Source: Dissulfurirhabdus thermomarina (lineage in GTDB: Bacteria > Desulfobacterota > Dissulfuribacteria > Dissulfuribacterales > Dissulfurirhabdaceae). From it: a stretch of 64,000 nt of DNA. Positions 37,579-50,905 of this stretch are shown piece after piece. The stretch covers positions 62,001 through 126,000 of the forward strand of contig NZ_JAATWC010000007.1 of NCBI RefSeq assembly GCF_012979235.1. Direction: 5' to 3'. Both the position numbers and the translations under genes were made by a program. The notes beneath the pieces are model-generated. The model did not search any database. It worked only from the letters and a program-made list of their open reading frames with translations, and was not told where the DNA came from. How positions within the stretch are numbered: the first letter of the stretch is position 1; each line of letters starts with the position of its first letter.

Positions 37579-38518
37579 CCCGGCCAGGGAAGGACCCGAG
37601 AGGACCGCCGCCGGCTCCCGGCCCGGCCACCGCTCCGGAGTGGTGGCCATCGTCGGGGCCCCGAACGTCGGAAAGTCCACCCTCCTCAACCAGTTTCTCG
37701 GGGCCAAGGTGGCCATCACCACCCCGAAGCCCCAGACCACCCGGGGGCAGATCCGCGGTATCCTCACGGGGGAGAACTTCCAGGTGGTCTTCGTGGATAC
37801 CCCCGGCATCCACGACTCGAAGCGGCTCCTCAACCGGGTGCTGGTCCAGTGGGCCACCCGGGCCCTGCACGACGTGGACGTGGTGGTCTTCGTAGTGGAC
37901 GTCAGCCACCGCGACCGCGCCCGGGAGCTGGCCATCCTGGATCTTCTCCGGGAGGTGGGGTGTCCCGTGGTGGCGGTGCTCAACAAGATCGACAAGGTGG
38001 CCAAGGAGAACCTGCTGCCCATCCTCGATGAACTCGGCCGGCTTCACCCCTTCGCCGCCCTGGTGCCCGTGGCCGCCCGGGACGGTGACGGGGTGGAGGC
38101 GGTGCTGGACGAGATCCTGCGCCTCCTCCCCGAGGGCCCGCCGTATTACGACGCCGAGACCCTCACGGACCAGGGCCCGGCCCAGCTGGCCGCGGAGATC
38201 ATCCGCGAGAAGGTCTTCCTCCTGGCGGGCCAGGAAGTCCCCTATTCCACCGCCGTGGAGGTGGAGGACATCGCCGACGAGCCGGAGACCGGGCTCCGGC
38301 GGGTCACGGCCACCATCTACGTGGAGCGTCCCTCCCAGAAGGGGATCCTCATCGGCAAGGGCGGGCGCTTCATCAAGAAGGTCGGACGGATGGCCCGGGA
38401 GGAGATGGAAGAACTCTGGCGCCGCAAGGTGTACCTGGATCTCCGGGTCAAGGTCCTCAAGGACTGGTCCCGGGACGAAAAGGCCCTGCGCCGGCTCGGG
38501 CTGGCCCGCCAGGAGTGA
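37571..38518 (+). CDS. era: GTPase Era
   Basis: Era is a GTPase that assists 30S subunit maturation by binding the 3' end of 16S rRNA. The 315-residue product has G1 GAPNVGKSTLLNQFLG, the switch TTPKPQTTRGQIRGI, G3 DTPGIHD, G4 NKID, and a C-terminal KH domain with GILIGKGGRFIKKVG. A 20-residue charged N-terminal extension precedes the G domain. The start overlaps rnc by 8 bp, giving coupled translation. A GC hairpin 67 bp downstream may end the transcript. Confidence 0.97.
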   Translation: MDDPAREGPERTAAGSRPGHRSGVVAIVGAPNVGKSTLLNQFLGAKVAITTPKPQTTRGQIRGILTGENFQVVFVDTPGIHDSKRLLNRVLVQWATRALHDVDVVVFVVDVSHRDRARELAILDLLREVGCPVVAVLNKIDKVAKENLLPILDELGRLHPFAALVPVAARDGDGVEAVLDEILRLLPEGPPYYDAETLTDQGPAQLAAEIIREKVFLLAGQEVPYSTAVEVEDIADEPETGLRRVTATIYVERPSQKGILIGKGGRFIKKVGRMAREEMEELWRRKVYLDLRVKVLKDWSRDEKALRRLGLARQE

Positions 38519-38585
38519 GGGCGGGCGCCGCCGGCGCGCCGCTGCCGGGGCCTTCCGCCTTCCGCGCCGGTCCCCGTTTCTTCTC

Positions 38586-38604
38586 GACCCCGGCGGCCGG
38601 GGTC
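38586..38604 (+). terminator. Hairpin after era, possible weak terminator
   Basis: GACCCCGG and CCGGGGTC form a perfect 8 bp stem with a 3 nt loop. No T-tract follows, so intrinsic termination is doubtful; it may stop exonucleases or belong to the regulatory array before lpxC. Confidence 0.45.
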
Positions 38605-38663
38605 GTCTCAAGGTGAGACATTTTGGTCCCATTTCGGGACGGCGGATGGGACATCGAGGTCCC
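38605..38663. promoter_or_regulatory. Three successive inverted repeats upstream of lpxC
   Basis: GTCTCA-AGG-TGAGAC (38605-38619), GTCCC-ATTTC-GGGAC (38626-38640) and GGGAC-N6-GTCCC (38648-38663) follow each other closely. All are perfect. The GTCCC/GGGAC arms recur in both orientations, as expected for several sites of one DNA-binding protein. Confidence 0.55.
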
Positions 38664-38678
38664 GCCCCGGGGTGTTGA

Positions 38679-38690
38679 TGTACCGGTACA
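38679..38690. promoter_or_regulatory. 12-bp perfect palindrome, candidate activator site
   Basis: TGTACCGGTACA is a perfect palindrome centred about 75 bp upstream of the predicted lpxC start site, the usual distance for a sigma-54 activator site. An A/T-rich stretch (38698-38728) that could bend separates it from the promoter. Confidence 0.5.
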
Positions 38691-38733
38691 CATATAACTG
38701 GCTGGAATAAAAGAATAAAAATTTATCTCCAGA

Positions 38734-38750
38734 TTGGCACCCTTTTTGCT
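38734..38750 (+). promoter_or_regulatory. Sigma-54 (RpoN) promoter of lpxC
   Basis: TTGGCACCCTTTTTGCT matches the consensus [CT]TGGCACG-N4-TTGC[AT] at all but one position, with GG (38736-38737) and GC (38748-38749) exactly 10 bp apart. The predicted start site is near 38761. This is the best sigma-54 element in the window and lies in its most AT-rich regulatory stretch. Confidence 0.8.
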
Positions 38751-38818
38751 CATAGACCGGCGGATCAAGGATTCGACGTCGGGGTGTGCCCTCGCCGCCC
38801 CGGTCCAAGGAGATGCCA

Positions 38819-39745
38819 GTGGTCGTCATGCAAAAGACGTTGCAAAGGAGTGTCGCCGCCCGGGGGGTGGGGCTCCATTCCGGCCGGGTCGTGACCGTTC
38901 GCCTCCACCCGGCCGATCCGGGCGCCGGGATCACCTTCGTCCGGGTGGACGAGACGCCCGCGCGGTGGATCGCCGCCCGCACCGCCAACGTGGTGGATAC
39001 CCGCATGGCCACCACCATCGGCGACGGCACCTGCTCTGTGGGCACCATCGAGCACCTCATGGCGGCTTTGGCGGGGCTGGGGGTGGACAACGCCAGGGTC
39101 GAGGTGGACGGCCCGGAGGTCCCGGCCATGGACGGCAGCGCCGGGCCCTTCTTGAAGCTCATCGAGGCGGCGGGGATCGAGGAGCAGTCCGCCCCGCGGC
39201 GTTACCTCGAGATCCTCGAGCCGGTGGAGGTCCGGGAGGGCGACAAGTTCGTCCGGCTGGAGCCCTTCGACGGTTTCCGGGTGGCCTTCGAGATCGACTT
39301 CGACCATCCGCTCATCGCCCGGCAGCGGTTCTCGGCCGACGTGGGTCCCGAGGCCTTCGCGCGTCAGCTCGGCCGCGCCCGGACCTTCGGGTTCCTCCAC
39401 GAGGTGGAATACCTCAAGCGCAACGGCCTGGCCCAGGGCGGCTCCCTCGACAACGCCGTGGTCCTCGGCGACGACGGGGTGCTGAACCGGGGCGGGCTCC
39501 GCTTCCCCGACGAGTTCGTCCGCCACAAGGTCCTGGACCTCCTCGGGGACCTCTACCTCTGCGGCCTGCCCCTGATCGGGCGGGTCGTGGCCAGGAAGAG
39601 CGGCCACGCCCTGCACCACGCCCTGCTCGCCGAGCTGGAGGCCCGGCCCGGCACCTGGTGCGTGGTGGAGCGCCGGCGCTCCGACGCCGAGGTCCGACCC
39701 GTCCCGAAGCGGCCGCGCCCGGCCGTGGCCGTGGCCGTGGCCTGA
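38819..39745 (+). CDS. lpxC: UDP-3-O-acyl-N-acetylglucosamine deacetylase
   Basis: LpxC carries out the committed step of lipid A synthesis, a zinc-dependent deacetylation. The 308-residue product has the zinc ligands in GTIEHLMAALAGLGVDN and FVRHKVLDLLGDLYL, the catalytic Glu-Asp region AMDGSAGPF and the C-terminal His in KSGHALHHALL. I chose GTG 38819, 6 nt after AAGGAG; ATG 38828 is further away and ATG 38813 overlaps that site. The protein ends KRPRPAVAVAVA, a hydrophobic tail reminiscent of the FtsH degron of E. coli LpxC. It stands alone behind a complex sigma-54 region. Confidence 0.96.
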   Translation: MVVMQKTLQRSVAARGVGLHSGRVVTVRLHPADPGAGITFVRVDETPARWIAARTANVVDTRMATTIGDGTCSVGTIEHLMAALAGLGVDNARVEVDGPEVPAMDGSAGPFLKLIEAAGIEEQSAPRRYLEILEPVEVREGDKFVRLEPFDGFRVAFEIDFDHPLIARQRFSADVGPEAFARQLGRARTFGFLHEVEYLKRNGLAQGGSLDNAVVLGDDGVLNRGGLRFPDEFVRHKVLDLLGDLYLCGLPLIGRVVARKSGHALHHALLAELEARPGTWCVVERRRSDAEVRPVPKRPRPAVAVAVA

Positions 39746-39775: not shown

Positions 39776-42136
39776 TCACCCGCCGGCGGCCTGGTCCAGG
39801 GCCCGCCGGAGGACCCGCAGCAGTTCCTCGCGCTTGTAGGGCTTGAGCACCAGGCCCGCCGCCCCCGCCCGGAGGAGTTCCTGGGCCGTCTGGTCCTTGG
39901 TGTAGCCGGTGGCGAGGATGACGGGCAGGCCCGGGGCCCGGGCCCGCAGCCGCTCGAAGGCCTCCCGCCCCCCCATCCCGGGCATGATGATGTCCAGGAG
40001 CACCGCCTGGATCTCCGCCTCTTCCCCGAGGCGCTCCAGGGCCTCTGCCCCGTCGGCGGCGGTCACCACCCGGTACCCCGCCGGGGCGAGGATGTCGGTG
40101 GACAGCTCCCGGATCATCTCCTCGTCGTCCACCACCAGGATCAGCTCGCCCCGCCCCAGCGCCTCCACGGGGCCGGGCTCCGGCCGCGTCTCGGCCGCCG
40201 CCCCGCCGGTCTCCTGCGCCGCCGGGAGGTAGAGGCGGAAGGTGGTCCCGCCGCCGGGCCGGGAGGCCACCGAGATGTGGCCCCCGTGGTTCTGGACGAT
40301 GCCGTAGACCATGGCGAGGCCGAGGCCCGTGCCCTCCCGGGGGCCCTTGGTGGTGAAGAAGGGCTCGAAGATCTTGGCCCGGACCTCTTCGTCCATGCCG
40401 TGGCCGGTGTCGGAGAGGGTGAGCCGGACGTAGTCGCCGGGGGGGACGAGGGTGCCCTGGCAGTCGAATGCCTCCTCGAGCCGCAGGTGCTCGGTGGCCA
40501 GGGTCAGGACGCCGCCCTCCGGCATGGCGTCCCGGGCGTTGATGCAGATGTTGAGGATCGCCTGGTGGATCTGGTCGCCGTCGGCCTGGACGGGGGGCAG
40601 GCCCGGGGCCAGCTCGGTCCGGATCTCGATGCGACGGTCGAAGGTCTCGCGGAGCAGGCGGGCCACCTCTTCCAGCAGCTGGTTGAGGTCCACCAGGGTC
40701 TCCTGGTACTTGCCCTTGCGGGCGAAGGCGAGGAGCTGGCCGGTGAGGTGGGCGGCGCGGTCGGCGCTCTTCTCGATGGCGGCCACGGCCTTGGCGAGGA
40801 GGGGGTGCGACCGCACCTCCGGCAGCGGCCGGATCATGCTCACGTAGCCGGAGATGCCGGTCAGGATGTTGTTGAAGTCGTGGGCGATGCCCCCGGCCAG
40901 GGTGCCGACGGCCTCCATCTTCTGGGCGTGGCGGAGTTGGCTCTCGAGGTTGCGGAGCGTGGTGACGTCCACCACCATGGCCTCGGCGTTTTGCAGCCGC
41001 CCGGTCTCGTCGCGGTGGGCGACCACCGAGAAGAGGGTCTCGAGCCGGCCGCCGTGACGCGCCCGGAGGGCGAGCGGCCAGTCGTGCACCCCGCCCCGGG
41101 CCTCCAGGGCCTCCCAGAGCGCGTCTGCGCCCGCCGGGTCCCAGGCGAAGTCGTCCAGGCGGTGGCCCGCGGCGCCGCCGCACTCCTGGATACCCAGCAG
41201 CTCCAGGAAGGCGGGGTTGCAGTCGAGGATCTCGCGCCCGGGGCCCAGGTGGACCAGCCCGTGGCGGATCCCCTCGAAGAGTCGCCGGTAACGCGATTCC
41301 GAGGCCTGCAGCCGCTCCCGCCGTTCCTCCAGTGCCGCCATCATGTGGTTGAAGTCCTCGGCGAGCTGGCGGATCTCGGCGGGGCCCGCCTCGGGCACGG
41401 GACGGTGGATCCCTTCCCACTCCACCGAGCGGATGACCGCCGCGAGGTCGGAGAGGGGCCGGGCGAGGCGCCGGACGAGGACGAGGATGAGCCCGGCCAG
41501 TCCCAGGAGGAGCGGGACGCCGATGAGGAGCCCGTCGCGCAGCAGGCGGCGCGCGGTGGCGGCGAGTTCCTCCCCGGAGACGGCGAGGCACAGGGTGCCG
41601 ATGGACTGGATCTCGCCCTCCGCCTCGCCGTCCCCGAGGCCGCCGAGGAGGTCGATCTCCGTCATCCGCCGGGAGGCCACCGAGTGCCAGAATTCGTAGG
41701 AACGGCCCTGGGGCCCGGCCAGCTCCCGGATCTCCACGGCGCCGGGGGCGAGGGGCGGCGCCGGGGCGGCCCGGAGGCGGTCGAAGGCGCACCGGGCCTC
41801 CGGCCGGAAGAGCTCGCCGGCCAGGTATTCCCCCTTGGCATTGTAGAAGACGGCGTAGAGGACGGCGTCCCGGGACCGAAGCCCCCGGACCATGGCGCGG
41901 AGCCGGTCCCCGTCCTCGGCCAGGAGGGGGATGCGGCTTCCGGAGGCGAGGCCCTCCACCAGGCTTTCCCCGCGCTTCAAGAAGTTCTCGCGCAGGAAGC
42001 GCATCTCGTGGTAGCCCGTGACCCCGAGCAGCACCAGGAAGGCCCCCGCCACCGCGGCCAGCGTGGCGGCCATGAGCTTGGCCCGGAAGGTGACGGGCCG
42101 CCGCTGGGGCTGGGGAGAGATCCGGTTCATCGCCAC
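39776..42136 (-). CDS. Hybrid sensor histidine kinase (TM-HAMP-PAS-HK-REC)
   Basis: This is a 786-residue membrane sensor. TM1 (about 22-45) and TM2 (about 200-222) enclose a periplasmic domain, followed by HAMP ([17 protein letters not shown]), PAS (about 285-400), HisKA with the phospho-His in [17 protein letters not shown], HATPase with [16 protein letters not shown] and [19 protein letters not shown], and a C-terminal receiver with the acceptor Asp in [16 protein letters not shown] start with GGAGG. It lies 30 bp after a periplasmic substrate-binding protein gene, which probably presents the ligand to the periplasmic domain. No separate output regulator is adjacent on this strand. Confidence 0.93.
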
Positions 42137-42166
42137 CGTGTGCCTCCGCCGCCGGGGCGGCGCCGG

Positions 42167-43123
42167 CTAGTCGAAGAGGCGCGAGGCCTTGGCCAGGTCC
42201 TCGGGGACCCGGACCCCGATCTTCTCGGCCGTCTTCATGTTGATGATCAGCCGCGGCCGCGGCGACCACCGCAACGGCACCTTGGACGGCGGGACGCCGC
42301 TCTGCAGGACCTTGACGATCTCGCCGGCCGCCCGGCCCATGGCCCGGATGTCGAAATCGAAGGAGAAGAGCGCCCCGGCCGCCACCTGCTTGTCGGAGAG
42401 CGCCATGAGCACGAACTTGTACCGGAGGGAGTTGAGCAGGAGGTAATCGAGGATCTCCCGGCGGATCACGGTGGTGTCCGGGAGCAGCCAGAAGGCGTCG
42501 ATCTCGGGGGAGATCTCCTTGATGGCGTGGAGGGCCTCGGCCGGGCTCGAGACCGCCCGCGCCACGAGGACCTGGTGGTGCTTCCGGGTCATCCGCTGGG
42601 CCTCCTCCACCAGGAAGGCCGACTGGGTGGGGTCGTAGACCAGGCCCACCCGGCGGGCGTTCGGGCGGAGGGTGAGCAGCGCCCACCAGTAGTCCTCCGG
42701 GGCGATGTTCATGGCCACCCCGGTGACGTTCTTCGGCCGGGAGTTGAAGAAGGTCCAGGGATTCAGGACCAGGCCGTAGACCATGGGGGCCTTGATCTGC
42801 GAGGTCAGGAGCAGCCGGAGCACCTTGGACCCCATGGCCACGATGATCTTGGGGTGCCGCGCCCGGATCCGGCGCAGCAGCTCCCGCTGCGGCACGGGGG
42901 TGTCCAGCCAGACCGCGGCGGGCTGGCACCCGCACCCCTCGGAGATGCCCTGGTAGGCCTCGAGGTAGGGCAGGAGCCGTCCCTCCAGCACCGCCACCAC
43001 CTCGGTGGTCTCGGCGGCCGGCGCCGCCGGGGGGCCGAGGGCGAGGAGCAGGGCGCAGAGCGCCGCCAGGGTCGCGGCCCGGCCCACCCGGGGGCGGGGG
43101 TTCTTATGGGAGGAAGATTCCAC
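42167..43123 (-). CDS. ABC-type substrate-binding protein (TrpX-like family), probable sensor partner
   Basis: This is a 318-residue periplasmic binding protein: a signal peptide (to about residue 37), then two alpha/beta lobes of the family that includes TrpX-like proteins (KIIVAMGSKVLRLLLTSQ, VGLVYDPTQSAFLVEEAQ, IDAFWLLPDTTVIRREILDY, RPRLIINMKTAEKIG). No permease or ATPase gene is nearby. Instead it precedes a hybrid kinase by 30 bp, so it probably works as a ligand-sensing subunit and not in transport. GTG start without an evident ribosome-binding site. The ligand is unknown. Candidate promoter: TTGGCA-16 bp-GATAAG at 43233-43260. Confidence 0.88.
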   Translation of the reverse strand: MESSSHKNPRPRVGRAATLAALCALLLALGPPAAPAAETTEVVAVLEGRLLPYLEAYQGISEGCGCQPAAVWLDTPVPQRELLRRIRARHPKIIVAMGSKVLRLLLTSQIKAPMVYGLVLNPWTFFNSRPKNVTGVAMNIAPEDYWWALLTLRPNARRVGLVYDPTQSAFLVEEAQRMTRKHHQVLVARAVSSPAEALHAIKEISPEIDAFWLLPDTTVIRREILDYLLLNSLRYKFVLMALSDKQVAAGALFSFDFDIRAMGRAAGEIVKVLQSGVPPSKVPLRWSPRPRLIINMKTAEKIGVRVPEDLAKASRLFD

Positions 43124-43232
43124 AGTCGAACACGCGTCGCCTTCGTGGGGCCGGCGCCCGCGGGCATGCCCGGGGCGCCGTTCCGGCCCCGGCTATGGGA
43201 GGAACGGGACGTCCAACCTCCAACCTCTTCAA

Positions 43233-43260
43233 CTTATCGAACCCATCGGGATTTTGCCAA
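43233..43260 (-). promoter_or_regulatory. Candidate promoter of the binding protein-hybrid kinase pair
   Basis: On the minus strand TTGGCA (43255-43260), 16 bp, GATAAG (43233-43238), in the only AT-rich part of the gap. The leader would be about 100 nt. Confidence 0.4.
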
Positions 43261-43381
43261 AAAAATTTTAACGGCGGCAAGCGGCGCCGCGGGCGCGGCG
43301 GCTCAACCTTCCCCGCCGGGGTACCGATAGAGAAAAGGGACCCCTTCGCGGGGCCGCCGCGGTTTTCCCGGAGGAACGCCC

Positions 43382-45103
43382 ATGCCCGCATCCGATCACC
43401 CGTCCCTGATCGACCTCATCCCCCAGGCGGCCTTCCGGGCCACGCCCGGGGGCCGGCTCGTCGAGCTCAACGTCCACGGGCGCCGCGTCCTCGGCCTGGC
43501 TCCCGGCAAGGGGAAGAAGGCCGCCCTCCGGGCCTGCTGCCGGCCGCCCGAGCGGTGGGACCACCTCGTGGCCGCGCTCCGGGCGGAGGGGTACGCCGAG
43601 GACTTCGAGTGCGAGTGGGAGTTCCCCGGGGGAGGGCCGGCCTTCCTCTCGGTGACCGCGGCGCTCGTGCCGGAGGCGGCGGACGGCGGGACGGTGGTGG
43701 GCCTCCTCCTCGACATGGGCGGGGCCCGCGAGCTCCAGGCCCGGCTCATCGAGAGCCGGAACCGCCTCCGGGCCGTGGCCGACGCGGTCCCCGACCTGAT
43801 CCTCGCCGTGGACCGGGACTTCCGGGTGACCCTGGCGAACCACGCGGCGGCCCACTGGATGGGGTGCCGGGTGGAGGAGGCGGCGGGGCGGCCCTGCACC
43901 GAGCTGCACGGGGGGCGCGAATGCCCGACGGAGGCGGACCCGGCGGCGTGTCCCGTCCGGCAGGTGTTCTCGGAGGGCCGGGCCGTCGCCAGGGTGCTGG
44001 AGCTCTCCGGCCGCCTCGGGCGGCGGATCTTCGGGGTCAATGCCGCGTCCGTTCCGGACGGCGAGGGGCGCTGCGGGCAGGTGGCCCTGGTCCTCCGGGA
44101 CATCACCGAGAGCCGGGCGGCGGAGGAGGAGATCCGGCGGCTCAACCGGGAGATCCAGGGCAACCTCGAAAAGCTCGAGGACCGCAACGCCCAGCTCGAG
44201 AAGGCCCTCCGGGAACTCAAGGAGGCCCAGTCGCATCTCCTCCAGTCGGAAAAGATGGCCTCGGTGGGGCAGCTCGCCGCGGGCGTCGCCCACGAGATCA
44301 ACAACCCCGTGGGATTCGTGAGCAGCAACCTCCAGACGCTCCGGTCCTACGCGGCGGACTTCCGCCGGGTGATCGAACTCTACCGGGAACTGGCCGCCCT
44401 CGTGGAACGGGAGGGCCCCGGGGAGGCGGCGGACCTCGCCGCCCGCGTCCGCGCCGCGGAACGGGAGGCGGACCTCGACTTCCTGCTCGCCGACCTGGAC
44501 GACCTCGTGGCGCAGTCGCTCGAGGGGACGGAGCGGGTCCGGAAGATCGTGGCGGATCTGAAGGACTTCTCCCAAGTGGACCGGGCGGAGCTCAAGCGGG
44601 CCGATCTCAACCGGGGGATCGAGAGCACCCTGAACGTGGTCTGGAACGAGCTCAAGTACAAGGCCGAGGTCCACAAGGACCTGGGCGACATCCCGCTCCT
44701 CCTCTGTTACCCCCAGCAGCTCAACCAGGTCTTCATGAACCTCCTGGTGAACGCCGCCCAGGCCATCGAGGGCCGGGGCGAGATCACCGTCTCCACCCGG
44801 GCGGTGGACGCGCCGCGGCCGGGGGTGGAGATCGTGGTGCACGACACCGGAAAGGGCATCCCCGAGGAGATCCGCCACCGGATCTTCGAGCCCTTCTTCA
44901 CCACGAAGCCCGTGGGGAAGGGGACGGGGCTCGGCCTTCACGTCACCTACAAGATCGTCCAGCGCCACCAGGGGACCATCGAGGTGGAGAGCGAACCCGG
45001 CAGGGGCACCACCTTCCGGGTCTTCCTCCCGGTCCTCGAGGAGGCGGACTTCGCCGGGGAGCCGGACCCGGCGGCGCCCGCCGCCGGCGCGGCCGGGGGG
45101 TAG
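43382..45103 (+). CDS. Cytoplasmic PAS-domain sensor histidine kinase
   Basis: This is a 573-residue kinase with no membrane segment. Two PAS-like modules (about 10-110 and 128-245, the second with [20 protein letters not shown] and a Cys-rich loop [17 protein letters not shown]) are followed by a coiled coil, HisKA with the phospho-His in [18 protein letters not shown], an unusually long insert (about 325-400), and HATPase with [14 protein letters not shown] and [19 protein letters not shown]. The cysteines in PAS2 could bind a metal or Fe-S centre, but this is inference. ATG with GGAGG. First gene of a five-gene signalling operon. Confidence 0.93.
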
Positions 45104-45109
45104 CGGGGC

Positions 45110-45958
45110 ATGGCGGAACGAGAGACCGTCCTCATCGTGGACGACGAGGAGAACGTGCTTGCGGCCCTCCGGCGCCTCCTCCGACGCGAGGGGTACCGGA
45201 TCCTCACCGCCACGGGGGGCGAGGAGGCCCTGGCCCTCCTCCGGGAGACGCCGGCGGACGTCATCGTCGCCGACCAGCGCATGCCGGGGATGAGCGGCAC
45301 GGAGTTCCTGGAACGGGCCCGGGAGATCTCCCCCCTCTCGGTCCGGATGATCCTCTCCGGCTACACCGCCGTGGACGCCATCACAGAGGCCGTCAACCGG
45401 GGCCACGTCTTCAAGTTCCTCTTGAAACCCTGGGACGACGACGAGCTCAAGGCCGTCGTCCGGGAGGCCCTGGAGGTGGCCCGGCTCCGGCGGGAAAACG
45501 ACCGCCTCGCCCGGGAACTCCGGGAGCGCAACCGGGAACTCGAGGACTGGAACCGCCGCCTCGAGGAGCGGGTGGCGGACCGGACCCGGGAGCTCGAACT
45601 CCGAAACCGGGTGCTCGAGAACTACCAGCACGTCCTCCACCAGGTGCCGGTGGGCGTCCTGGGGGTGGGCGACGACGGCCTCGTGGCCTTCGCCAACGAC
45701 CGGGCCCGCCGGATCCTGGGCGGGGCCGATCCGGTGCTCCTCGAGGCCCCGGTGGCGGCGGTGCTCGGCCCGGAGACGGCCCGGGAGGTCGCCGGAGTCG
45801 GCCCCGGCCGCCCCTCCTTCCGGGGCGTCCTCCAGCGGCCCGGGGGGTCGCCGGTGGAGGTCCGGGCGGCGCCGGTGCGCTACCCCCACGGGGCCGTGGG
45901 GCGGGTGGTGGTCTTGATCGAACGGGACGGCGGCCCGGAAGAAGGAGGTCTACCGTGA
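45110..45958 (+). CDS. Response regulator with REC and PAS-like domains
   Basis: This is a 282-residue protein. The REC domain (1-120) has VLIVDDEENVLAALRRLLRR (cut: VLIVDDEENV), acceptor Asp in VIVADQRMPGMSG, and KFLLKPWDDDEL with the conserved Lys. A long coiled coil (about 125-175) follows, then a PAS-like domain (180-275, VPVGVLGVGDDGLVAFANDR). There is no kinase, DNA-binding or enzymatic output, so it is probably a signalling adaptor. It lies 6 bp after the kinase gene and overlaps the next regulator gene as GTGA. Confidence 0.9.
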   Translation: MAERETVLIVDDEENVLAALRRLLRREGYRILTATGGEEALALLRETPADVIVADQRMPGMSGTEFLERAREISPLSVRMILSGYTAVDAITEAVNRGHVFKFLLKPWDDDELKAVVREALEVARLRRENDRLARELRERNRELEDWNRRLEERVADRTRELELRNRVLENYQHVLHQVPVGVLGVGDDGLVAFANDRARRILGGADPVLLEAPVAAVLGPETAREVAGVGPGRPSFRGVLQRPGGSPVEVRAAPVRYPHGAVGRVVVLIERDGGPEEGGLP

Positions 45959-47283
45959 CGGACCAGGTGATGGAGACCCCGCCGCGGGGCGGGGCGGCGG
46001 CTCCCGGCGGAAACGTCCAGACCGTCCTCCTCGTGGACGACGAGGAGAACATCCTCAAGGCCCTCAACCGGCTGCTCCGGCGGGAAGGCTACCGGGTGCT
46101 GGCCACCACGAGCCCCATGGAGGCCATGGACCTCGTCCTGGAACACCCGGTGGCCGTGGTGATCTCCGACCAGCGGATGCCCGAGGTGAGCGGGACGGAG
46201 CTCCTCGCCGCCATCAAGGAGGCCGCCCCGGACGTGGTGCGCGTGATGCTCACGGGCTACGCCGACATGGAGGCGGCCATGGACGCCATCAACAAGGGGG
46301 AGGTCTTCCGCTTCATCACCAAGCCCTGGCAGGAGTCGGACCTCGTGGCCACGGTGCGCCAGGCGGCCCTGCAGCACTTCCTGGTCACCGAGAACCGGCG
46401 CCTCCTCCAGGTGACCGAGGAGCAGAACCAGCGGCTCCAGGAACTCAACGCCCGGCTGGAGGAGAAGGTCCTCGAGCGGACCCGGGAGCTGGAGGACCGC
46501 CACCGGGAGCTCCAGGAACTCCACGCCCGGCTCCAGACCAACTTTCGCGACACGGTCCGGGTCTTCGTGGAGATCATGGAGCTCTACGACCCCTTCCTCG
46601 GGGGGCACGCCAACCGGGTGGCCGCCCTCGCCCGCCGCCTGGCCGAGCGCATGGGGATCGAGGGCGTGGACCTCGACCTCGTGGAGATCGGGGCGGCCCT
46701 CCACGACATCGGGCTCATCGGGGCGCCCAAGGAGGTGGTCAAGGTGCCCGCCGACCGCCTGACCCCGGCCCAGCAGGAGATCTACCGCGGCCACCCGGCG
46801 CTCGGCCAGCGCCTGCTGAAGAAGATCGAGTTCCTCCGCCAGGCCGCCCTCCTCGTCCGGAGTCACCACGAGCGGTTCGACGGGCAGGGGTTCCCGGACG
46901 GGCTCCCGGGGGTGGCGATCCCCGTGGGCGCCATGATCACCCACGCGGCGAGCTACCTGGACGGCCTGGTCCACCGGGAGGGCGTGGCCCCGGCCAAGGC
47001 CCTGGAGCGGATGTCGGGCCTCGCCGGCACGGTGTTCGACCCGGAGGTGGTGCGGGTCCTGGCGGAGCTGGTCCCCGCCCAGGCGCCGCCCCGGAAGGTG
47101 GTGGCGCTTCCCCTCGAGGAACTCGAGCCCGGGATGCGCCTTGCCGCCGACATCAAGACGGCCTCGGGGCGGTTCCTCGTGCCCCGCGGCACGCGGCTCA
47201 ACGAGGTCCAGATCATGCGGCTCCGGAACTTCCACCAGGTGGACCCCATCGCGGGCCGGGTCCGCGTGAGCCTGGAGGACTGA
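45955..47283 (+). CDS. Response regulator with diverged HD-GYP domain
   Basis: This is a 442-residue protein: REC (20-135, acceptor Asp72 in VVISDQRMPEVSG), coiled coil (145-195), an HD-GYP-type domain (198-370), then a tail domain (383-435). HD-GYP enzymes hydrolyse c-di-GMP. Here His250-Asp251, His280 and His304-His305 are kept, but the Lys of HDxGK is Leu254, GYP reads GFP (312-314), and the metal-binding Asp of the ADVFD motif is Ser333. Activity may be altered or lost. GTG start with AAGGAGGT. The tail domain recurs as a separate gene immediately downstream. Confidence 0.9.
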   Translation: MTDQVMETPPRGGAAAPGGNVQTVLLVDDEENILKALNRLLRREGYRVLATTSPMEAMDLVLEHPVAVVISDQRMPEVSGTELLAAIKEAAPDVVRVMLTGYADMEAAMDAINKGEVFRFITKPWQESDLVATVRQAALQHFLVTENRRLLQVTEEQNQRLQELNARLEEKVLERTRELEDRHRELQELHARLQTNFRDTVRVFVEIMELYDPFLGGHANRVAALARRLAERMGIEGVDLDLVEIGAALHDIGLIGAPKEVVKVPADRLTPAQQEIYRGHPALGQRLLKKIEFLRQAALLVRSHHERFDGQGFPDGLPGVAIPVGAMITHAASYLDGLVHREGVAPAKALERMSGLAGTVFDPEVVRVLAELVPAQAPPRKVVALPLEELEPGMRLAADIKTASGRFLVPRGTRLNEVQIMRLRNFHQVDPIAGRVRVSLED

Positions 47284-47289
47284 GGGCGC

Positions 47290-47634
47290 ATGGCGGGGGC
47301 CGTCCGCATGCCGGTGGGCGAGGTGCCGGAGGGCGCGGTGCTCGCCCGTGACCTCCATACCCCGGAGGGGCAGCTGCTGCTCCGGGCCGGGACGGCGCTC
47401 ACGCCGGAGGCCCTCGCCTGGCTGGCGGAGAAGGGGATCGACTCGGTGCCGGTGGCCGAGACCCCGGAGGCGGCGGCCGAGGGCGGGGCGGACATGGCCG
47501 TCCGGGCGGCCCTCGATGCCCTGGCCCCCCGGTTCCGGCGGGTGGCGGGGGACCCCCTCATGGAGGCCATCCGCCTGGCGCTGGCGCGGCACCTGGCCGG
47601 GCACGGGGGAGGGGAGGGGCGTGGAACGGATTGA
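47290..47634 (+). CDS. Stand-alone HD-GYP-associated tail domain
   Basis: The N-terminal half of this 114-residue protein (VGEVPEGAVLARDLHTPEGQ then LLLRAGTALTPEALAWLAEK) parallels the C-terminal tail of the preceding HD-GYP regulator (LEELEPGMRLAADIKTASGR then FLVPRGTRLNEVQIMRLRN). The second half is a short helical region. No catalytic residue is seen. Such tails occur at the ends of many HD-GYP and HDOD proteins. Here it forms an independent gene between the two, overlapping the HDOD gene by 14 bp, so it may be a shared adaptor. Confidence 0.75.
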   Translation: MAGAVRMPVGEVPEGAVLARDLHTPEGQLLLRAGTALTPEALAWLAEKGIDSVPVAETPEAAAEGGADMAVRAALDALAPRFRRVAGDPLMEAIRLALARHLAGHGGGEGRGTD

Positions 47635-48487
47635 CGTCCGCGAGCGCCTCCAGAAGGCCCCGGATCTCCCGGCGCTCCCGCAGACCGTCTCGCGGCTCCT
47701 CGAGGCCCTGCGCGATCCCGACGTCCGGGTGGAGGCCCTGTCGGAGGAGATCGCCTTCGACCAGGCCCTGGCCGCCCGGATCCTCCGGCTGGTGAACTCC
47801 TCCTTCTACGGCCTGCCGAACCGGGTGGCGGACCTCCGCCAGGCGGTGGTGGTGCTGGGGCTCCAGACGGTCCAGAACGTGGTGCTCTCCATCTCCCTGG
47901 CGGATGCCTTCCGGGGGATCGCCAGCCGGGACTTCCCGCCGGAGCCCTTCTGGGTCCACACCATCGCCGCGGGGCTCGTCAGCCAGCGCCTGGCCGCCCG
48001 GGCCGCCCTCCCCGAGGCGAACGACGCCTTCGTGGCGGGGCTCCTCCACGACATCGGAAAGCTCCTCCTCCTCCGCCTCTTCCCCGAGGGCTTCGCCGGG
48101 GTGCTCCAGGCGGCCCGGGCGGAGGATCGTTTCATCCGCGAGGTCGAAAAGAGGGCCTTCACGGTGGGTCACGCGGGCCTCGGCGGTTGGCTGGCCGCGG
48201 AGTGGCGGCTCCCCGAGGGCATCGTCCACGGGATCCGGTATCACCACGCCCCCGGAAAGAGCGAGCATCCCTTCGCCGCCGTGGTCCACGTGGCCGACGC
48301 CCTGGTCCGGGCCTTCGGCGTGGGGTCCGGAGGGACGGACCTCGTTCCGCCCATCGACGCCGGGGCCTGGCGGCGGCTGGGGCTCGATGGCGTGGACCTC
48401 GACGACCTCGTGGCCGAACTCCACTGGTGCCTGGCGGGGGTCGGCGAGACGGCGGCCGTCCTCTTCGACGGGGGCGGCCGGGGCTAG
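47621..48487 (+). CDS. HDOD domain protein
   Basis: The 288-residue protein is almost wholly an HDOD domain: LQKAPDLPALPQTVSRLLEA at the start, IAFDQALAARILRLVNSSFYG, VVLGLQTVQNVVLSISLADA, FVAGLLHDIGKLLLLRLF with the HD pair, and AEWRLPEGIVHGIRYHHAPG. HDOD proteins regulate signalling, stress or motility through protein contacts; most have no proven enzymatic activity. GTG 47621 with GGGGAGGGG is the chosen start. Last gene of the PAS-HK operon, convergent with the EndoQ-like gene with a shared CTAG stop. Confidence 0.9.
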   Translation: MERIDVRERLQKAPDLPALPQTVSRLLEALRDPDVRVEALSEEIAFDQALAARILRLVNSSFYGLPNRVADLRQAVVVLGLQTVQNVVLSISLADAFRGIASRDFPPEPFWVHTIAAGLVSQRLAARAALPEANDAFVAGLLHDIGKLLLLRLFPEGFAGVLQAARAEDRFIREVEKRAFTVGHAGLGGWLAAEWRLPEGIVHGIRYHHAPGKSEHPFAAVVHVADALVRAFGVGSGGTDLVPPIDAGAWRRLGLDGVDLDDLVAELHWCLAGVGETAAVLFDGGGRG

Positions 48488-49794
48488 AAGAGGGGGAGCT
48501 GCGCCGGCCGGCCGGCGTCGTCCTCTTCGGCCGGTTCCTCCCCGTAGAGGGAGATCCGGCCGTAGACCCCGTCGTGGCCGGGGCGGATGGAGACCCGTCC
48601 CTGGCGCATCCGGCGGATGCCGAGGAGGATCCGCTCCGGCACCACCGCGGCCAGTTCCTCCAGGGGCCGCCAGAGCAGGATCTCCATCTCGGGGCCCGCC
48701 AGGGCCACGAGCCGCGCGTACTCCCTTCGGACCCGGCTCGTCACGGATTTCACCCCCAGGGCCTCGGCGACGATTTCCTCGAGGGGCACGAGGTGCACCG
48801 CCGGCCGGTCCCTGTCGGGCGTCCCGGGCTCGGGCCGGTCGGCCAGTTCCTCCACCCGGTGGAGGACGCCCACGGTGAGGGGCCGGCCGCAGGCCGGGCA
48901 GCGGCCGCCGAGGCGGCGGGTGGCGGCCGGGGCGAGTTCCACCCCGCAGGCCCGGTGGCCGTCGTGGTGGTATTTCCCCTCCTCGGGGAAGAATTCGATG
49001 GTTCCCTCGAAGCCCCGGTCCGGGTCCCGGATGGCGGCCAGGACGGCATCGTAGCCGAGGGGGCAGGAGAAGACGTTGGCCTCCCGGCCGAGCTTCTCCG
49101 GGGAATGGGCGTCGGAGTTGGAAAGGAGCGTGTAGCGATCCAGGGCCGACAGGCGCCGGTTCATCCCCGGGTCGGAGGACAGCCCCGTCTCCAGGGCGCG
49201 GATGTGCCCGCTCTCCTCCTCGAAGCAGTCCTCCAGGGCGTCGAAGCCGGACTTGGCCCCGAAGAGGGAGAACCACGGGGTCCAGACGTGGGCCGGGAGG
49301 ACGAAGCTGGCGGGGTCGGCCTCCAGGGCGAGGCGCACCAGGCGCTTCACCGGGAAGCCGAAGATGGGGCGGCCGTCCGAGGCGACGTTTCCCAGGAGGC
49401 GGAGCCGGGCCTGGATGTCGCGGGCCACCTCGAGGTCGCGGGCGAAGAGCACCGTGTGGATCCGGCGGTTGCGCCCGCCCTGGGTGAAGATGTTGGCCAC
49501 CTCGGCGGTGAGGACGAACCGGGTGCCCTCGGGGTTGCCCCGCCAGGCGTAGAGGCCGGTGCCGTCGGGGACGAGTTCCCGCTCGAGCTCCGCCAGCCAG
49601 CCGGGGTGGGTGAAGTCGCCGGTTCCCACCAGTGCCAGGCCCTTCAGGCGGGCCCAGCGGTCGAGTTCCGGGACGGTCATCCGGCGGCTGGTGGCCCGGC
49701 TGAACCGGGAGTGGATGTGGAAGTCGGCCAGGAAGACGTCCCGCCGCCAGGGCGGAAAGGGGCGCCCGCCCCGGGCCTTCGTGGGCGCTGGCAT
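48484..49794 (-). CDS. PHP-domain endonuclease Q-like protein
   Basis: The 436-residue protein matches the EndoQ/YqxK-like family, which nicks DNA 5' of deaminated bases such as uracil and hypoxanthine. PHP domain: FHIHSRFSRATS (His26, His28), GTGDFTHPGWL, LTAEVANIFTQGG, LPAHVWTPWFSLFG and LLSNSDAHSPEKLGREAN supply the metal ligands. A Cys4-type zinc site (ACGVEL then CPACGRPL) follows near residues 275-300, then a helical domain. The extreme C-terminus AQLPLF resembles a bacterial beta-clamp binding motif. ATG with GGAGG. It lies 37 bp after an HD-GYP regulator gene. Confidence 0.85.
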   Translation of the reverse strand: MPAPTKARGGRPFPPWRRDVFLADFHIHSRFSRATSRRMTVPELDRWARLKGLALVGTGDFTHPGWLAELERELVPDGTGLYAWRGNPEGTRFVLTAEVANIFTQGGRNRRIHTVLFARDLEVARDIQARLRLLGNVASDGRPIFGFPVKRLVRLALEADPASFVLPAHVWTPWFSLFGAKSGFDALEDCFEEESGHIRALETGLSSDPGMNRRLSALDRYTLLSNSDAHSPEKLGREANVFSCPLGYDAVLAAIRDPDRGFEGTIEFFPEEGKYHHDGHRACGVELAPAATRRLGGRCPACGRPLTVGVLHRVEELADRPEPGTPDRDRPAVHLVPLEEIVAEALGVKSVTSRVRREYARLVALAGPEMEILLWRPLEELAAVVPERILLGIRRMRQGRVSIRPGHDGVYGRISLYGEEPAEEDDAGRPAQLPLF

Positions 49795-49831
49795 GTCGCT
49801 GCCTCCGGTGCTCGGGGATCCGGGGGGGATT

Positions 49832-50905
49832 CTACCCGATGGCGGCGCCGGCGTCGTCCCGGAGGTCTTCGCGGATCCGGCGCAGCTCCGGCAGGAGGTC
49901 GAGGAAGCAGTCGAGGACCCGGGGGTCGAAGTGGGTGCCCCGCCCCTCCCGGAGGATGTCGAGGGCCTGGCGCTCGGTGAGGGCCGGCCGGTAGACCCGG
50001 TCGTGGACCAGGCTGTCGTAGACGTCGCAGACCGCGGTGATGCGGGCGCTCTCCGGGATGTCCCCGCCGGAGAGGCCGTCGGGGTAGCCGGAGCCGTCCC
50101 ACTTCTCGTGGTGGCGGAGCGCGATCTCGGCGGCCATCTGGAGGAGGGGGATGTCGGAGCCGCCGAGCACCCGGGCCCCGATATCGGCGTGGCGCTCCAT
50201 GACGGCGAATTCCTCGGGAGTCAGGGGGCCGGGCTTGAGCAGGATGGCGTCGGGGATCCCGATCTTCCCCACGTCGTGCATGGGGGCCGCGAGGCGGATG
50301 TCTTCCACCGCCGCCGCCGGCCAGCCCAGGGCCCCGGCCACCGCGGCGGCGAAGCGGCCGATGCGCTGGACGTGGGCGCCGGTCTCGCGGTTCCGGTACT
50401 CCAGGGCGGAGACGAGGCGGAGGGCGATCTCCTCCTCCCGGCGCTTGATGTCGCGGGTGCGCTGTTCGACCTTGGCCTCGAGGCGTTCCTCGTAGTCGCG
50501 GCTCTCCTGGATGAGGCGCCGCCGTTCCAGGGCGTTCAGGATGTTGATGGCCACCTCGTGGCGGTCGAAGGGCTTGATCATGTAGCCGTAGGCCCCGAGG
50601 GAAAGGGCCCGGACGGCGGTCTCCCGGTCGTCCACGGCGGTGGCCATGATGACGGCCACGTCCGGGTGGCGGCTCCGGATGTCCGAGAGGAGCTCGATGC
50701 CGGAGCGCCCCGGCATCATGATGTCGGAGAGGACCACGGCGATCTCGGGATGCTCCCGCAGGCGGTCCAGGGCCTCGTCCGCGCCGCCGGCGGTGAGGCA
50801 GGTGAAGCCCTCGGTCCGGAGGAGCCGCGAGAGGCTGTCGCAGACGAAGGGTTCGTCGTCCACGACCAGGACGGTGGTGTCAGTCCTCGCCCGTTCGGAT
50901 GCCAT
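49832..50905 (-). CDS. Response regulator with canonical HD-GYP phosphodiesterase domain
   Basis: This 357-residue protein is predicted to hydrolyse c-di-GMP when its receiver is phosphorylated. REC (10-125) has VVDDEPFVCDSLSRLLR and acceptor Asp in VVLSDIMMPGRSG. A coiled coil (130-160) leads to HD-GYP with RNRETGAHVQRIG, HDVGKIGIPDAILLKPG, MERHADIGARVL, HHEKWDGSGYPDGLSG and AVCDVYDSL: all metal and substrate residues are intact, unlike the paralog at 45955. ATG with GGGGAGGGG. It probably forms a unit with the EndoQ-like gene. Confidence 0.95.
   Translation of the reverse strand: MASERARTDTTVLVVDDEPFVCDSLSRLLRTEGFTCLTAGGADEALDRLREHPEIAVVLSDIMMPGRSGIELLSDIRSRHPDVAVIMATAVDDRETAVRALSLGAYGYMIKPFDRHEVAINILNALERRRLIQESRDYEERLEAKVEQRTRDIKRREEEIALRLVSALEYRNRETGAHVQRIGRFAAAVAGALGWPAAAVEDIRLAAPMHDVGKIGIPDAILLKPGPLTPEEFAVMERHADIGARVLGGSDIPLLQMAAEIALRHHEKWDGSGYPDGLSGGDIPESARITAVCDVYDSLVHDRVYRPALTERQALDILREGRGTHFDPRVLDCFLDLLPELRRIREDLRDDAGAAIG

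What the first reader, a model, noticed from the sequence alone, without database searches (positions are those of the whole stretch)
38586..38761. Elaborate sigma-54 control region in front of lpxC
TTGGCACCCTTTTTGCT (38734-38750) is a near-perfect RpoN promoter with exact GG-N10-GC spacing. Upstream lie a perfect 12-bp palindrome at about -75, an AT-rich bendable segment, and three perfect inverted repeats with recurrent GTCCC/GGGAC arms. LpxC is normally controlled by proteolysis and housekeeping transcription. Activator-dependent sigma-54 transcription of the committed lipid A step would be unusual and would tie LPS synthesis to a signal.
Basis: partly seen in the sequence, partly recalled or inferred. 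Interest (0 to 1): 0.72.

Follow-up and report, generated by a model that had tools for sequence, protein, structure and literature searches.

The report
Sigma-54 enhancer-controlled lpxC promoter

Summary
The -24/-12 element (38735-38750) is real and conserved. Of 41 lpxC upstream regions from this order, 38 carry GG-N10-GC with at least 9/12 consensus matches (2 expected from shuffles). Alpha/beta/gamma controls: 3 of 47 (3.7 expected).

The conserved units are two 18-bp enhancer sites, TGAGACATTTTGGTCCCA (38614-38631) and TGGGACATCGAGGTCCCG (38647-38664), 33 bp apart. In relatives they read TGTG-N10-CACA, at about -122 and -88 from the -24 element. Six exact matches to a strict site pattern in ten whole genomes all lie upstream of lpxC, so the regulator looks dedicated. 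The 12-bp palindrome is not conserved.

NtrX is the best candidate activator, not proven. Across the phylum lpxC lies in an lpxC-DUF4390-ntrY-ntrX gene order, often behind paired TGTG-N10-CACA sites. Five genomes encode NtrX-LpxC or receiver-LpxC fusion proteins. Against this, one near-complete genome has the sites but no NtrX.

Sigma-54 control of lpxC is already reported in Desulfovibrio vulgaris (DVU2934, PMC3333781). New here: phylum-wide extent, enhancer architecture, the NtrYX link and fusions. It may bear on why sigma-54 is essential in Myxococcus and Geobacter.

The parts
38735..38750 (+). sigma-54 -24/-12 promoter element TGGCACCCTTTTTGCT; predicted transcription start about 38761
   Evidence: Sequence; GG-N10-GC at the corresponding place in 38/41 order regions with >=9/12 matches
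38614..38631 (.). enhancer site UAS1 TGAGACATTTTGGTCCCA (centre about -138 from the predicted start)
   Evidence: 10/10 match to TGNGAC-N6-GTCNCA; only exact genome-wide hit of TGNGACNTTTTNGTCNCA; conserved position about -122 from the -24 element in relatives
38647..38664 (.). enhancer site UAS2 TGGGACATCGAGGTCCCG (centre about -105), 33 bp from UAS1
   Evidence: 9/10 match; conserved position about -88 from the -24 element in relatives
38691..38734 (+). AT-rich spacer between enhancers and promoter, plausible DNA-looping segment (inferred)
   Evidence: Sequence; AT-rich in relatives too; no protein-binding test made
38679..38690 (.). 12-bp palindrome TGTACCGGTACA; not conserved, role unknown
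   Evidence: Sequence; absent at this place in relatives
38819..39745 (+). lpxC, UDP-3-O-acyl-N-acetylglucosamine deacetylase (GTG start with SD 38807-38812; alternative ATG 38828)
   Evidence: PF03331 E 3.4e-110; single copy in the genome
37571..38518 (+). era, upstream gene; era-lpxC adjacency is found only in this order
   Evidence: ORF; adjacency in 35 order loci, in none of the 80 other loci
38586..38619 (+). two hairpin-forming repeats after era; the second overlaps UAS1; weak terminator candidate

Best explanation
lpxC is transcribed from a sigma-54 promoter that starts near 38761 and needs an enhancer-binding ATPase bound at two dyad sites (38614-38631 and 38647-38664), which contacts RNA polymerase by looping over the AT-rich spacer. 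The activator is most likely NtrX (G000:C1:26090-27481), phosphorylated by NtrY (upstream gene, envelope sensor kinase). In this order lpxC has moved from the ancestral lpxC-DUF4390-ntrY-ntrX gene order to a place behind era, but the paired enhancers and the sigma-54 promoter are kept. Shown by comparison: promoter element, paired enhancers, their spacing, their near-exclusive link to lpxC, the NtrYX synteny and the NtrX-LpxC fusions. Inferred: that NtrX binds these sites, that transcription depends on it, the direction of the gene move, and the envelope signal.
For: Sigma-54 element: order 38/41 vs 2.0 expected; Myxococcota 14/14 vs 1.0; alpha/beta/gamma 3/47 vs 3.7. Enhancers: 41/41 order regions with >=8/10 matches vs 3.3 expected; properly spaced pair in 30/41 vs about 0; fixed spacing to promoter. 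All six exact hits of TGNGACNTTTTNGTCNCA in ten whole genomes lie upstream of lpxC. NtrX: lpxC-DUF4390-ntrY-ntrX in G049 and G058 and lpxC followed by DUF4390 and/or ntrY in Desulfobacterales, Geobacter and Desulfarculus loci; these outgroups carry sigma-54 elements in 6/13 (0.57 expected) and exact TGTG-N10-CACA in 3/13 (0.05 expected), often paired 32-33 bp apart; NtrX-LpxC fusions in five genomes; NtrX with intact GAFTGA and a conserved helix-turn-helix in the order. D. vulgaris DVU2934 has lpxC as its single target, and in S. fumaroxidans lpxC lies directly upstream of the orthologous regulator operon (PMC3333781).
Against: No transcript start, binding or mutant data. NtrX was not found in 5 of 45 order relatives that keep the enhancers, one of them (G029) 99% complete with two perfect sites. 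Two other enhancer-binding proteins (G000:C1:446005 and G000:C9:18450) are about as widespread in the order. The ntrYX operon of this genome carries no exact copy of the site. The outgroup half-site (TGTGNC) differs slightly from that of most order members (TGTGAC), though genus g9 bridges the two.
Confidence: 0.68

Rival explanations
1. Same sigma-54 promoter and enhancers, but the activator is another enhancer-binding protein: the orphan GAFTHA-type regulator (G000:C1:446005-447369), the order-specific orphan response regulator beside a lipid-kinase-like gene (G000:C9:18450-19841), or the PilR-like one (G000:C1:125077).
For: Orthologues of the first two in 40/46 and 42/46 order genomes, as common as NtrX; the GAFTHA and PilR-like proteins are present in G029 and G014, which lack NtrX. 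The order-specific one matches the order-specific form of the site.
Against: The first two are themselves missing from near-complete genomes with the sites (G003 and G018 lack the GAFTHA one, G027 the C9 one). None is linked or fused to lpxC in any genome seen; outgroups with TGTG-N10-CACA pairs lack the C9 one. PilR would be expected to have pilin targets, yet exact sites occur only at lpxC.
Confidence: 0.25
2. The kinase/receiver/HD-GYP cluster 3.6 kb downstream in the window (43382-47283) controls lpxC, as proposed for the DVU2931-DVU2933-DVU2934 operon of D. vulgaris.
For: Similar gene kinds (PAS kinase, receiver-PAS, receiver-HD-GYP) near lpxC; DVU2934 operon described in PMC3333781.
Against: The cluster has no enhancer-binding protein; none of the 14 PF00158 matches is on this contig.
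Confidence: 0.05
3. The -24/-12 match is a chance hit and lpxC uses a housekeeping promoter or read-through from era; the repeats are terminator hairpins.
For: The motif alone is not enriched genome-wide; hairpins and one weak terminator-like stem after era.
Against: Conservation of element, paired enhancers and spacing across the families of the order far above shuffles; no sigma-70-like site found in 38400-38900; hairpin folding no better than shuffles.
Confidence: 0.02

Closest known systems
DVU2934 - lpxC (DVU2917) regulatory unit of Desulfovibrio vulgaris Hildenborough (PMC3333781, PMC4641369)
   Same: Sigma-54-dependent response regulator with lpxC as its single mapped target.
   Different: The authors found their validated motif upstream of lpxC only in two other Desulfovibrio; the regulator operon has a kinase and an HD-GYP protein. 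Here: a paired TGNGAC-N6-GTCNCA / TGTG-N10-CACA enhancer, no linked activator gene, and evidence pointing to NtrYX. Whether DVU2934 is NtrX was not tested.
NtrYX control of the cell envelope in Rhodobacter sphaeroides (PMC7240162)
   Same: The same two-component family affects envelope genes, and lpxC transcript changes 8.8-fold in the mutant.
   Different: There lpxC goes up without NtrYX, no NtrX site was found at lpxC and the effect was judged indirect; here a direct sigma-54 activation is proposed.
Predicted sigma-54 regulons including lpxC in Myxococcia (COG0774, PMC12316311) and Leptospira (PMC12655853)
   Same: Sigma-54 promoter predicted upstream of lpxC.
   Different: No enhancer sites or activator for lpxC were reported in the passages read.
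FtsH/Lon proteolytic control of LpxC (established knowledge, E. coli and others)
   Same: Regulates the same committed step; many order members end in a nonpolar tail that resembles a degron (not tested).
   Different: Post-translational, not transcriptional.

Membership tests
sigma-54-dependent promoter | GG-N10-GC -24/-12 element | tested here: met
sigma-54-dependent promoter | rpoN and enhancer-binding proteins in the genome | tested here: met
sigma-54-dependent promoter | upstream activator sites, about -80 to -200 | tested here: met
   two conserved dyads
sigma-54-dependent promoter | mapped start and loss of transcription without rpoN | not testable with these tools
   needs 5'-end mapping or mutants
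NtrX regulon | NtrX and NtrY orthologues present | tested here: met
   G000:C1:23772-27484 (L210:5773-9485); Pfam domains, NtrX orthologues
NtrX regulon | presence of NtrX in every genome with the sites | tested here: not met
   missing in G029, G014, G017, G042, G045; assembly gaps possible, but G029 is 99% complete
NtrX regulon | NtrX binds the sites | not testable with these tools
   indirect only: synteny, fusion, shared site architecture
DVU2934-type lpxC regulation | dedicated single-target regulator of lpxC | tested here: met
   exact sites only at lpxC in ten genomes, a sequence-level test
DVU2934-type lpxC regulation | same validated binding motif and orthologous regulator | not tested

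The most novel reading that the evidence does not exclude
NtrYX and LpxC form an ancient dedicated control module in Desulfobacterota: an operon lpxC-DUF4390-ntrY-ntrX with NtrX enhancers and a sigma-54 promoter, a split but still wired version in this order, and a fused version in which the NtrX receiver (or a whole NtrX without its sigma-54 loop) is part of the LpxC enzyme, so that control passes from transcription to the protein. Dependence of lpxC on sigma-54 would help explain why rpoN cannot be deleted in Myxococcus xanthus and Geobacter sulfurreducens.
Probability: 0.5. Interest if true: 0.82.

Novelty: new variant of a known kind. Interest (0 to 1): 0.68.

Why it matters
LpxC is essential, an antibiotic target, and is known in model organisms mainly for proteolytic control. 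A conserved, activator-dependent promoter means that in a large part of the former Deltaproteobacteria lipid A synthesis is switched by a signalling cascade. Sigma-54 is reported as essential in M. [quoted passage not shown] sulfurreducens (PMC2725144); an lpxC promoter that needs sigma-54 is a simple, testable reason, alongside the dcuB and ammonia-assimilation explanations given by those authors. The NtrX-LpxC fusions suggest direct phosphorylation control of the enzyme.

Tried and rejected
Palindrome 38679-38690 as an activator site: not conserved. Hairpin/attenuator reading: folding no better than shuffles, no Rfam family in 38400-39000. The window's own HK/HD-GYP cluster as regulator: no enhancer-binding protein in it. 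Covariation of the NtrX recognition helix (H to Y) with the half-site TGTGAC to TGTGTC: looked promising in genus g9, but other Y-bearing genomes keep TGTGAC (vs 68), dropped. Phylogenetic profile of all 12 enhancer-binding proteins: does not single out one; the HK-linked one at C1:486690 is absent or divergent in family f2, so unlikely. Keseler and Kaiser 1997 could not be read and is cited through PMC2725144 and PMC12316311.

Full report
WHAT IS THERE. The window lies in a 2.46-Mb, high-GC genome (G000:C7:62001-126000) whose nearest named relative among the fetched loci is a deltaproteobacterial MAG (L032). The region reads rnc - era - 300 bp - lpxC. The -24/-12 element TGGCACCCTTTTTGCT (38735-38750) is as described. 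lpxC is PF03331 at E 3e-110 and is the only copy. The genome has one rpoN and 12 strong sigma-54 activators.

CHANCE. The motif alone proves little: six exact TGGCAC-N5-TTGC sites occur in the genome, and near matches are not enriched over the reversed pattern. I therefore compared the region upstream of lpxC in 45 order-level relatives, 14 other genomes of the phylum and 80 loci from a public genome collection. No other genome of the same family was available.

CONSERVATION. Against dinucleotide shuffles of the same regions, the sigma-54 element (>=9/12) is present in 38 of 41 order regions (own plus 40 relatives; 2.0 expected), 14 of 14 Myxococcota (1.0 expected; several are close relatives, so not independent) and 6 of 13 loci from groups where lpxC is mostly followed by DUF4390/ntrY genes (0.57 expected), but only 3 of 47 alpha/beta/gamma loci (3.7 expected). 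The three order regions below threshold still have GG-N10-GC with 8/12.

ENHANCERS. Upstream of the element the relatives show two copies of an 18-bp dyad. In most families it is TGTGAC-ATTTTT-GTCTCA-like, in genus g9 TGTGTC-N6-GACACA; TGTG-N10-CACA covers both. The copies sit at about -122 and -88 from the -24 T (a few families -135/-99), 33-36 bp apart. A correctly spaced pair (>=8/10 each) is found in 30 of 41 regions against about zero expected. In the window the copies are TGAGACATTTTGGTCCCA (38614-38631) and TGGGACATCGAGGTCCCG (38647-38664). In ten genomes the six exact hits of TGNGACNTTTTNGTCNCA all lie upstream of lpxC, so the regulator seems to have lpxC as its sole high-affinity target, as reported for DVU2934 in D. 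vulgaris (PMC3333781).

THE ACTIVATOR. Three lines point to NtrX. First, gene order: lpxC-DUF4390-ntrY-ntrX in G049 and G058, and lpxC followed by DUF4390 and/or ntrY (ntrX where the locus is long enough) in Desulfobacterales, Geobacter, Desulfarculus and other delta loci. Several of these loci carry a sigma-54 element and paired TGTG-N10-CACA sites 32-33 bp apart: Desulfarculus L096 has two perfect copies, L100 has one perfect copy, G049 two near copies. Second, fusions: five genomes of the phylum encode LpxC fused to an NtrX-type receiver (L415, L416, L417) or to a whole NtrX-like protein without the GAFTGA loop (L413, L414); in L414 the fusion gene follows DUF4390 and ntrY. Receiver and LpxC signature motifs are retained. 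Third, NtrX is present in 40 of 45 order relatives, with intact GAFTGA and a conserved helix-turn-helix in all those aligned. In this order lpxC sits behind era (35 order loci, none of the 80 others), yet the enhancers and promoter persist.

WEAK POINTS. NtrX was not found in five order genomes that keep the sites, one of them 99% complete. Two other activators have equally broad distributions. So NtrX is a well-supported candidate, about 0.65-0.7, whereas the sigma-54/enhancer promoter itself is close to certain as a conserved feature (about 0.95). Nothing here measures transcription or binding.

PRIOR KNOWLEDGE. Sigma-54/response-regulator control of lpxC was mapped in vitro in D. vulgaris (PMC3333781; listed in PMC4641369). 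The authors noted that in S. fumaroxidans lpxC lies directly upstream of the orthologous regulator operon, but found no conserved motif outside two Desulfovibrio. Sigma-54 enrichment at COG0774 in Myxococcia is stated in PMC12316311, and a prediction exists for Leptospira. In R. sphaeroides NtrYX loss raises lpxC transcript, judged indirect. No paper found in the library describes the paired enhancer, the lpxC-ntrYX gene order or the fusions; the library is not complete.

SIGNIFICANCE. rpoN is reported essential in M. xanthus and could not be deleted in G. sulfurreducens (PMC2725144; PMC12316311). Both lineages show a sigma-54 element upstream of lpxC here (Geobacter from one MAG locus). If lpxC has no sufficient sigma-70 promoter in those bacteria, this would account for the requirement; that is a hypothesis with a direct test. 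In D. vulgaris regulation by DVU2934 was regarded as a possible additional fine-tuning mechanism, so dependence may differ between lineages.

Noticed in passing
L413:3959-6190, L414:3151-5331, L415:5962-7329, L416:5993-7432, L417:5655-7016: NtrX-LpxC and NtrX-type-receiver-LpxC fusion proteins (453-743 aa) in five genomes of the phylum; the two long ones lack the GAFTGA loop. No paper found describing them.
   Followed up: partly
window 39675-39742 (LpxC C-terminus) and relatives: Many order LpxC proteins end in a nonpolar tail (here PAVAVAVA; others SAAVPA) like a proteolysis signal, whereas the LpxC fusions end at the domain edge with no tail.
   Followed up: partly
window 39776-50905: Dense signalling cluster after lpxC: hybrid kinase with adjacent ABC-type substrate-binding protein, PAS kinase, receiver-PAS, two receiver-HD-GYP proteins and an HDOD protein (several named from reading the translations only).
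   Followed up: partly
G000:C1:446005-447369 and orthologues L222, L363: Conserved orphan GAFTHA-type activator, followed in relatives by a conserved envelope-protein-like gene; orthologues in G004 and G014 lack the receiver domain.
   Followed up: partly
L040, L048, L058, L061, L079 upstream of lpxC: Myxococcal lpxC promoters share a TTCCAAGGGGTTGG-like repeat about 60 bp upstream of the sigma-54 element, a possible different enhancer.
   Followed up: no
L045 (BNCN01000006.1): Record titled Comamonas sp. carries an lpxC region very similar to that of Myxococcus; probably mislabelled.
   Followed up: no
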